Shown here: positions 24,802 to 27,234 of the stretch, one piece after another
Layout: each line of letters begins with the position of its first letter
Numbering within the stretch: position 1 is the stretch's first letter
From: Acidobacteriaceae bacterium
GTDB lineage: Bacteria; Acidobacteriota; Terriglobia; Terriglobales; Acidobacteriaceae
DNA length: 64,000 nt
Direction of reading: 5' to 3'
NCBI GenBank assembly: GCA_025352065.1
Contig: JANXUC010000021.1
Span: 62,001 to 126,000, forward strand
Notes under the pieces: generated by a model
The model's database searches: none
The model's input: the letters and a program-made list of their open reading frames with translations, nothing else
Told to the model about the DNA's origin: nothing
Position numbers and translations under genes: made by a program

Positions 24802-25293
24802 ATGCCTAAAACTACTACGCTACCCTGTAGTTCTGCCCGTCGTCAGCCCAAGCGTTGCGGAGAACTCGCCGAACTGGCCTTCCTCCACAAAGCTTCCAAT
24901 CAGGGTCTCAAGCTCTCCAAACCCTACGGCGACAGCGACCGCTACGATTTCATCGCCGATACCGGACTGCGTCTACTCAAGGTCCAGGTCAAATCCACCA
25001 GCTATGAAAAAGCTCCCCAAGTCTACAGCGCCTGCGTCGGGCGCCATCTCACCGGAAAACTGGTTCCCTACCTGCCCGGACAAGTCGACTTCATCGTCGT
25101 CTACCTCGTCCCCGAAGACAGCTGGTACATCCTGCCCATGCATGTTGTGGATGGCAAAGTCATGCTCTGGCTGCACTCCCGCAACCATCCCAAGCCCGGA
25201 GTCTACGGAAAATACCTCGACGCCTGGCCTCTGTTGATCGGCGCAACACCGGACCCGCAAACCGCGCCGGACATTCCACATTCGCAACCCTGA
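24802..25293 (+). CDS. PD-(D/E)XK endonuclease, group I intron homing type
   Basis: A 163-residue protein resembling the PD-(D/E)XK family that includes the bacterial homing enzyme I-Ssp6803I. Seen: GELAELAFLHKA (helix with conserved Glu at 21/24), RYDFIAD with Asp49, and LLKVQVKST with Gln62-x-Lys64 as the catalytic Q/E-x-K, then VDFIVVYLVPEDSWYILP. Such nucleases cut a DNA target and can spread their host element. I do not see an intact group I intron around it, so it may be free-standing. SD GGAG with a 4-base spacer. It lies in a non-glycan island on the opposite strand to its left neighbours. Confidence 0.78.
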   Translation: MPKTTTLPCSSARRQPKRCGELAELAFLHKASNQGLKLSKPYGDSDRYDFIADTGLRLLKVQVKSTSYEKAPQVYSACVGRHLTGKLVPYLPGQVDFIVVYLVPEDSWYILPMHVVDGKVMLWLHSRNHPKPGVYGKYLDAWPLLIGATPDPQTAPDIPHSQP

Positions 25294-25545: not shown

Positions 25546-25633
25546 AGGAAAAACCCTTCCGACCACCGAAACTTTGTCCTCCCGAACAGGCGGGTGGCCC
25601 AGCCTTTGACCTCTCTTCCCATACCGGAACATC

Positions 25634-25780
25634 GGGTGCCCCATCCTCGCGTTTTTTGCGAGGGTGGGAGTCATCACACTTAAGATCATACCGTTCTTCG
25701 TCGCGCTCGAAACGATACGTGTTCTATTGTGATAACAGTTCGAATTCCCACCCCTCGCAAAAACGCGAGGATGGGACACC
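25634..25780. repeat. Pair of inverted hairpin repeats
   Basis: Left copy GGGTGCCCCATCCTCGC...GCGAGGGTGGG (25634-25668) and right copy CCCACCCCTCGC...GCGAGGATGGGACACC (25747-25780) are inverted copies of one another, and each is itself a hairpin around a T- or A-rich loop. The same family occurs at 3541-3580. Confidence 0.75.
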
Positions 25781-25978
25781 CTCTGTCTTGGTTGTGTCCG
25801 AGAGATCAACGGCGTAAGGCTGGGCCACCCGGCCTGAGCCACAAGCGAAGAACTCAGCACTATCCGAAACGAGCATCAACAGGTCAAGGGACTTCCTCCT
25901 GTCCGAATAGCACGACCGAGCTAGTTGGTCTGTTCCAAGAGCAAGATAGAGTGTTATTAGAGGACATAGAGGGACATC

Positions 25979-26743
25979 ATGAAGATGAACAAAAAGCCGT
26001 TGCCCATCGCGACGATTTGCAACTGGGAAAATCGCATTGACGCGCAGCCAGACTACCAACGCCCTCCGGCTTGGGGCCGCCAGCAGAAGCAGCTCTTAAT
26101 TGACTCCATCCTTCGGGAGTTCGACATACCGAAGATGTACTGGCGAGAAGTCAATCGTGACAAGATCAAATACGAGGTAATCGACGGGCAGCAGCGACTT
26201 CGCACAATATGGGAGTACCGGGCTGGCGCTTTTGGCATGGCCAAGGATAGCGATCCCGTAAAAGGCTTCAGCGTTGCAAATATGAAATACTCCGATCTGC
26301 CTTTGGACCTCACCTCGGATTTTGACTCTTACGCGGTCGATGTCGTGATTGTGGATGAAGCGGCTCAGAACGACAACGAGGACGAAGTCAGGGATATGTT
26401 TCTGCGATTGCAAAATGGCACGACGCTCAAGGCCCAGGAAAAGCGCAACGCCATGCCTGGCGAAATGCGAAATTTCGTCAAAGAACTAAGCGGCCACCAA
26501 TTTCTCGATAACTGTAAGTTTTCGAACAAACGGTACACGTTCGATCACATTGCGGCCCAAACCATCTGTATCGAACTTAAAGACGGCGCAGGGAATATTA
26601 AAGATAGCGATCTAAGGAAAATGTATGAGGAGAATCGTACTTTCGACCCAAGCGGCTTGAAGGCAAAAAAGTGCGGCGTGTATATGATTTCTTGCTCAAG
26701 GCGTTCCCTGAAAAGACGCCCGAACTCGAGCGCTACAGCGTAA
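25979..26743 (+). CDS. DUF262 nuclease, N-terminal frame
   Basis: A 254-residue frame with the DUF262 (GmrSD-like, ParB-related) signature: DYQRPPAWGRQQKQLLIDS at residues 25-43, then YEVIDGQQRLRTIWEY with the DGQQR motif at 69-73. DUF262 domains hydrolyse NTP in type IV modification-dependent nucleases such as GmrS/BrxU. After residue 231 the similarity to the family stops and a short unrelated tail (CGVYMISCSRRS...) leads to a stop, while the -1 frame continues the protein to 27234. The switch lies exactly on A-AAA-AAG at 26665-26671. Read through with -1 shifting it would be one 418-residue DUF262-HNH protein. SD GAGGG precedes the ATG. It may instead be a frameshifted pseudogene. Confidence 0.8.
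   Translation: MKMNKKPLPIATICNWENRIDAQPDYQRPPAWGRQQKQLLIDSILREFDIPKMYWREVNRDKIKYEVIDGQQRLRTIWEYRAGAFGMAKDSDPVKGFSVANMKYSDLPLDLTSDFDSYAVDVVIVDEAAQNDNEDEVRDMFLRLQNGTTLKAQEKRNAMPGEMRNFVKELSGHQFLDNCKFSNKRYTFDHIAAQTICIELKDGAGNIKDSDLRKMYEENRTFDPSGLKAKKCGVYMISCSRRSLKRRPNSSATA
26665..26671 (+). other. Slippery heptamer A-AAA-AAG at the frame change
   Basis: In the zero frame the codons are AAA (26666-26668) and AAG (26669-26671) preceded by A, the exact dnaX-type -1 slip site. GAAGG at 26659-26663 could act as a stimulatory Shine-Dalgarno-like site or as an SD for the GTG at 26671. No strong downstream hairpin within 10 bases is evident. Confidence 0.7.
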
Positions 26744-27234
26744 TCACCCTCTATTGCCTTGCTTCACTCCTGCTTGACGGATACGCGATGGAGGGCGTGG
26801 ATGAAAAATTGAGAAATTGGTTTATAAGTTTTGAGACTGAGCGGCGCGCTCAAGAAGGTCTACCCGATGAGCATAAGGACGATCAACTACGCGAATACCG
26901 CCGCCTCATCAGCCAGTCAACTGATGCCGAAGAGAGCGTTCGCGCTCGCCTCGAAATGATGGAGCGGCGATTCTTCATCGCCTACCCAGACATAGAACCT
27001 CGTGATGGACAGCGCGCATTCAGTCACGAACAACGCTTGGCGATATTTCGCCGCGACGAGGGCCTCTGCCAGCTTCGCCTGAAGTGCGACGGAAACCGGG
27101 TGTCGTGGGATCACTGGCACGCGGACCACAAGGTGGCACATGTGAAGGGTGGCAAAACGACCGTTGCTAACGGTCAGGTCGCGTGCCCGCCCTGTAATCT
27201 CGCCAAAAGCGGTCACACAATCGATGGATCTTAA
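26671..27234 (+). CDS. DUF262-linked HNH endonuclease, C-terminal frame
   Basis: A 187-residue frame that continues the DUF262 protein in the -1 frame. It starts with the helical linker (VRRVYDFLLKAFPEKTPEL) and ends in an HNH nuclease domain: FRRDEGLCQLRLKCDG, WDHWHADHKVAH with the catalytic histidine, then ANGQVACPPCNLAKS with the Asn, CPPC and second zinc cysteine pair. This is the GmrD-like nuclease half of DUF262 restriction proteins, which cut modified or foreign DNA. A GTG at 26671 with GAAGG seven bases upstream could also start a separate subunit. Stop at 27232-27234 is followed by a 244-base gap. Confidence 0.78.
   Translation: MRRVYDFLLKAFPEKTPELERYSVITLYCLASLLLDGYAMEGVDEKLRNWFISFETERRAQEGLPDEHKDDQLREYRRLISQSTDAEESVRARLEMMERRFFIAYPDIEPRDGQRAFSHEQRLAIFRRDEGLCQLRLKCDGNRVSWDHWHADHKVAHVKGGKTTVANGQVACPPCNLAKSGHTIDGS

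What the first reader, a model, noticed from the sequence alone, without database searches (positions are those of the whole stretch)
25979..27234. DUF262/HNH nuclease divided exactly at a -1 frameshift heptamer
The N-terminal DUF262 frame and the C-terminal HNH frame overlap, and family-like sequence moves from one to the other at A-AAA-AAG (26665-26671), placed in the zero frame as in dnaX. One -1 slip would join both halves into a 418-residue protein; the in-frame product ends 70 bases later, giving DUF262 alone (254 residues). GAAGG right before the heptamer could stimulate slipping or start the HNH part at GTG 26671. Either a regulated two-product anti-phage nuclease (GmrSD/BrxU-like) or a homopolymer indel.
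Basis: partly seen in the sequence, partly recalled or inferred. Interest (0 to 1): 0.65.

Follow-up and report, generated by a model that had tools for sequence, protein, structure and literature searches.

The report
Frame-broken DUF262-HNH nuclease gene
A gene for a probable anti-phage DNA-cutting enzyme has lost one base in its longest run of A's, so it now reads as two fragments; its close relatives are all one unbroken gene, so this looks like an ordinary mutation or sequence error rather than a programmed frameshift.

Summary
The sequence facts are right. A 254-aa DUF262 (GmrSD_N) frame and an HNH frame overlap, and A-AAA-AAG lies at 26665-26671 in the dnaX-like phase. The programmed-frameshift reading is not supported. 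Five lines of evidence count against it. (1) The four best homologues (44-67% identity; Bradyrhizobium, a gammaproteobacterial MAG, a Rhizobium plasmid, a Granulosicoccaceae MAG) are each one continuous frame. Three read Ala-Lys-Lys-Val in frame at the junction and none of the four carries the heptamer. (2) No downstream hairpin exceeds shuffled controls, and the upstream AAGG is 1 nt from the heptamer, against 10 nt in dnaX. (3) The genome has both tRNA-Lys(UUU) and tRNA-Lys(CUU), which disfavours slipping on AAG, and its own dnaX has no A6G. (4) The break sits in the only A6 run, the longest homopolymer in the gene. (5) At least one other gene in this draft genome is broken by one base without any slippery site. 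The best reading is a one-base loss in an ancestrally fused DUF262-HNH (GmrSD-like) nuclease gene, recent because neither half has decayed. Real mutation or draft-assembly error cannot be settled without reads. The founding GmrS/GmrD split was itself reported to be such an artefact.

The parts
25979..26743 (+). ORF1: N-terminal part of a DUF262 (GmrSD_N, ParB/Srx-like NTPase) nuclease; residues 1-231 are homologous to relatives, the last 23 residues (out-of-frame tail) are not
26183..26197 (+). DGQQR motif (residues 69-73) of the DUF262 NTPase pocket, intact and invariant in relatives
   Evidence: motif function from PMC10952713
26659..26663 (+). GAAGG, weak SD-like sequence, 1 nt before the heptamer and 7 nt before GTG 26671; duplex energy -3.3 kcal/mol, matched by 29% of 16-nt windows in ORF1
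26665..26671 (+). A-AAA-AAG heptamer in zero-frame phase; contains the only A6 run of the gene (the longest homopolymer) and the site of the one-base loss relative to homologues
26671..27234 (+). ORF2: C-terminal part (helical region plus HNH domain), continuous with ORF1 in all homologues; frame open from 26629, with GTG 26671 its first start codon
27094..27210 (+). HNH nuclease motif (HWHADHK...NGQ...CPPCN), catalytic and zinc residues intact

Best explanation
This is a probably horizontally acquired, single-gene DUF262-HNH (GmrSD-like, probably modification-dependent) restriction nuclease whose reading frame has been broken by loss of one base in its longest homopolymer run. The ancestral protein of about 418 residues would couple a DUF262 NTPase/DNA-sensing domain to an HNH cutting domain. 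As it stands the gene makes only a truncated DUF262 protein with a 23-residue junk tail, so the nuclease is probably inactive. The heptamer is what a contraction of an Ala-Lys-Lys-Val coding A-run leaves behind, not a programmed signal. Shown: the frames, the homologues and the absence of stimulators. Inferred: loss of function, and anti-phage activity of the intact form. Not decided: a real recent mutation (about two thirds) or a draft-assembly/consensus error (about one third).
For: Homologues L012 (67% best segment), L014 and L015 (66%) and L013 (44%) are single ORFs of 409-423 codons across the junction. The junction reads GCC AAG AAA GTC in L012 and L014, and GCG AAA AAG GTT in L015, with no heptamer; L013 has a continuous frame without the Lys-Lys pair. 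The A6 run is the longest homopolymer in the gene. No downstream structure (z +0.4 to +1.2). No SD at the dnaX spacing. Both Lys tRNAs are present. Neither half has clearly decayed: at sites where the other three close relatives agree, the C half differs at 8.4% (relatives 10-12%) and the N half at 14.9% (relatives 4.5-11.9%). One-base frame breaks occur elsewhere in the 386 kb examined, clearest in an amidohydrolase at G000:C4 about 8142, where joining the halves raises the Pfam score from 137.5 to 150.1. A third DUF262 locus in the genome is a truncated remnant. Precedent in the family: PMC4619093.
Against: The break coincides exactly with one of the most shift-prone heptamers known in E. 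coli, in the correct phase, and the rest of the gene is intact, which a functional frameshift would also predict. No sequencing reads and no second genome of this species or genus were available (one search lists no same-genus genome).
Confidence: 0.88

Rival explanations
1. Programmed -1 ribosomal frameshifting on A-AAA-AAG makes two products, DUF262 alone and DUF262-HNH.
For: Correct heptamer and phase; one -1 slip joins the halves; both halves otherwise intact.
Against: Not conserved in any homologue; no downstream hairpin; SD-like AAGG 1 nt from the heptamer instead of 10 nt as in dnaX (PMC11162774); both tRNA-Lys(UUU) and tRNA-Lys(CUU) genes, a situation discussed as unfavourable for slipping on AAG (PMC5009743); the genome's own dnaX carries no A6G.
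Confidence: 0.05
2. A split two-subunit enzyme: ORF2 is translated on its own from GTG 26671, coupled to ORF1, giving separate DUF262 and HNH subunits.
For: GTG at 26671 with AAGG 7 nt upstream and a 73-nt overlap with ORF1; PMC4619093 describes separate GmrS and GmrD proteins in some bacteria.
Against: The SD is weak (-3.3 kcal/mol, as good as 29% of 16-mers in ORF1; ORF1's own start has -6.3); the GTG is absent in relatives; the split falls inside a predicted helix 228-243 of the L014 homologue, not at a domain border (low-confidence model).
Confidence: 0.04
3. Phase-variable switch: slipped-strand change in the A run turns the nuclease on and off in the population.
For: The break is in the longest homopolymer of the gene; restriction genes are a class in which phase variation is known (own knowledge).
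Against: An A run of 6-7 is short for a contingency locus (own knowledge); relatives do not have the run; no population data.
Confidence: 0.03

Closest known systems
GmrSD / BrxU / SspE (DUF262 + DUF1524 type IV restriction enzymes)
   Same: N-terminal DUF262 with the DGQQR motif, helical middle, C-terminal His-Me finger nuclease; fused single polypeptide in homologues
   Different: C-terminal domain is a zinc-type HNH (PF01844), not DUF1524 (PF07510); about 420 residues, shorter than the PADLOC models of HEC-05/BrxU (583-600 positions); here frame-broken
PADLOC NsnA and REase_II models (PDLC03877, PDLC03418), PD-T4-2_A
   Same: Best profile matches of the joined protein (6e-30, 1.5e-16, 4e-13) and of its intact relatives
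   Different: The NsnA match covers 4-329 and misses the HNH domain; I did not test for the partner genes of those systems beyond the immediate neighbours
E. coli dnaX -1 frameshift cassette
   Same: A-AAA-AAG heptamer in the same phase
   Different: No SD 10 nt upstream, no stem-loop 6 nt downstream, a second tRNA-Lys, no conservation
GeneTack singleton frame transitions bridged by BLASTp (Antonov et al. 2013, PMC3711429)
   Same: Single-genome frame break bridged by continuous homologues; the authors attribute this class to sequencing errors or recent indels
   Different: This one happens to lie on a slippery heptamer

Membership tests
Programmed -1 frameshift gene | Slippery heptamer X-XXY-YYZ in zero-frame phase | tested here: met
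Programmed -1 frameshift gene | Frame transition and heptamer conserved in homologues | tested here: not met
   four homologues, all one frame, no heptamer
Programmed -1 frameshift gene | Downstream stem-loop or pseudoknot | tested here: not met
   folding no better than shuffles (pseudoknots not modelled)
Programmed -1 frameshift gene | SD-like stimulator about 10 nt upstream | tested here: not met
   region -24 to -7 of the heptamer has -1.7 kcal/mol, as good in 62% of windows
Programmed -1 frameshift gene | Two products made in vivo | not testable with these tools
   needs proteomics or a reporter
GmrSD family (DUF262 + DUF1524) | DUF262 domain with DGQQR motif | tested here: met
GmrSD family (DUF262 + DUF1524) | DUF1524 (PF07510) nuclease domain | tested here: not met
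   HNH PF01844 instead, PF07510 not reported up to E = 1
GmrSD family (DUF262 + DUF1524) | Cleavage of modified-cytosine DNA | not testable with these tools
   needs biochemistry
DUF262-HNH subfamily (L012, L013, L014, L015) | Full-length homology over both domains, HNH residues intact | tested here: met
   66, 66, 66 and 44% identity over 418 positions
DUF262-HNH subfamily (L012, L013, L014, L015) | One continuous reading frame | tested here: not met

The most novel reading that the evidence does not exclude
A lineage-specific -1 frameshift newly evolved at a homopolymer contraction, making a long DUF262-HNH nuclease from a small share of ribosomes and a regulatory DUF262-only protein from the rest.
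Probability: 0.05. Interest if true: 0.6.

Novelty: new member of a known kind. Interest (0 to 1): 0.12.

Why it matters
The case shows how a homopolymer contraction in a Lys-Lys codon pair can produce a textbook dnaX heptamer exactly at the break, so a slippery site at a split gene is weak evidence of recoding unless relatives share it. It also adds a small DUF262-HNH subfamily that, in a Rhizobium plasmid, sits inside a type III restriction-modification operon. If the frameshift were real it would be, as far as I know, the first recoded type IV-like restriction enzyme.

Tried and rejected
Downstream hairpin: four segments folded, none better than shuffles. Independent ORF2 start: weak SD, not conserved. 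dnaX-type recoding in this organism: its dnaX has no A6G. Decay of the HNH half as a sign of an old pseudogene: not seen. Further homologues: viral-contig scans with the protein and with the alignment found none; phage records gave only partial DUF262 matches below 60% identity; a phylum sample of 396 genomes gave only two others at E 1e-30 or better, so species-level conservation of the split cannot be tested. Structure: a model from three homologues had mean pLDDT 54, too poor for a fold search.

Full report
Observation. The window is part of a 183-contig, 4.25 Mb draft genome. ORF1 (25979-26743) is a DUF262/GmrSD_N protein and ORF2 (26671-27234) an HNH protein in the -1 frame. The heptamer A-AAA-AAG at 26665-26671 is in the zero-frame phase of ORF1. 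Codon-usage scores trained on long ORFs of the same genome change frame at about 26670. The description is therefore correct. The heptamer is not unusual in itself: the window has 9 AAAAAAG against 11.6 expected, and 9 zero-phase copies occur in 228 long ORFs, 102,540 codons.

Homologues decide the question. The joined 418-residue sequence finds four full-length relatives: Bradyrhizobium sp. C9 (L012), Gammaproteobacteria AqS3 (L014), Rhizobium sp. NLR16a plasmid p7 (L015), all about 66%, and a Granulosicoccaceae MAG (L013, 44%). All four are single open frames of 409-423 codons. At the junction L012 and L014 read GCC AAG AAA GTC and L015 reads GCG AAA AAG GTT, each Ala-Lys-Lys-Val in frame; L013 is continuous without the Lys-Lys pair. 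None carries the heptamer. The window copy is one base short there.

Stimulators are absent. In dnaX the SD-like element lies 10 nt upstream and a hairpin 6 nt downstream (PMC11162774). Here GAAGG ends 1 nt before the heptamer and the region at the proper distance has no SD. Segments downstream fold no better than shuffled sequence (z +0.4 to +1.2). E. coli slips well on this heptamer because its sole tRNA-Lys pairs weakly with AAG; for Thermus thermophilus, which has a second lysine tRNA, this is discussed as a possible reason for not using ribosomal frameshifting in dnaX (PMC5009743). This genome carries both tRNA-Lys(UUU) and tRNA-Lys(CUU), and its own dnaX has no A6G. Without stimulators, the frameshift-prone heptamers in E. 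coli exceed a background of about 0.05% by at most tenfold (PMC4066793).

The break sits where an indel is most likely. The A6 run is the longest homopolymer in the gene. A decoding scan of 386 kb of the genome finds other candidate frame breaks, clearest an amidohydrolase on contig C4 whose conserved metal-site region is cut by a one-base frame break with no slippery site; most other transitions in that scan are ordinary gene overlaps. A third DUF262 locus, on contig C10, is a truncated remnant. Neither half of the window gene shows clear decay relative to its relatives, so the event is recent or is a data error. In a survey of 1106 genomes (PMC3711429), single-genome frame breaks bridged by homologues were attributed to sequencing errors or recent indels. 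In this protein family the founding GmrS/GmrD split of E. coli CT596 was reported to be such a case (PMC4619093).

What the gene is. The intact form joins a DUF262 domain with the DGQQR motif to an HNH domain with all catalytic and zinc residues. It resembles GmrSD/BrxU in architecture, but its nuclease domain is PF01844, not DUF1524, so it is not filed as GmrSD proper. The best PADLOC model is NsnA. In the window it stands alone within a polysaccharide gene region, next to a PDDEXK_5 gene. Members of the window's own family of bacteria lack close copies while the best relatives are proteobacterial, which suggests horizontal transfer. In Rhizobium it lies between the methylase and restriction genes of a type III system behind a DrmD-like helicase. 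By analogy with GmrSD, BrxU and TgvAB (PMC10952713, PMC11411939) the intact enzyme probably senses modified DNA through DUF262 and cuts with HNH; this is inference.

Verdict. A one-base loss in an ancestrally fused nuclease gene, 0.88. Programmed frameshifting (0.05), independent translation of ORF2 (0.04) and phase switching (0.03) are not excluded. Real mutation against assembly error cannot be separated without reads; I lean to a real mutation because the run is only six bases long and the draft looks like a short-read assembly, which is a guess from contig number and not tested.

Noticed in passing
L015:1106-10244 (Rhizobium sp. NLR16a plasmid p7): A DUF262-HNH gene is embedded between type III mod and res genes, behind a DrmD-like SNF2 helicase: a possible type IV nuclease nested in a type III R-M operon.
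   Followed up: partly
G000:C4 about 8142, minus strand (L025): An amidohydrolase gene is cut by a one-base frame break just before its conserved DAHTH metal-site motif, with no slippery heptamer.
   Followed up: partly
window 24802-25293: PDDEXK_5 protein (4e-19), homing-endonuclease-like in PADLOC, directly upstream of the DUF262 gene; both interrupt a polysaccharide biosynthesis region.
   Followed up: no
window 25591-25831: Long nested inverted repeat (16-nt perfect outer arms, 68-nt inner arms at 72%) between the PDDEXK_5 and DUF262 genes; one further copy of the outer-arm motif lies elsewhere on the same contig.
   Followed up: partly
G000:C10:8365-8490 (L086:1429-1710, minus strand): Truncated DUF262 remnant matching only the first 44 profile positions.
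   Followed up: partly
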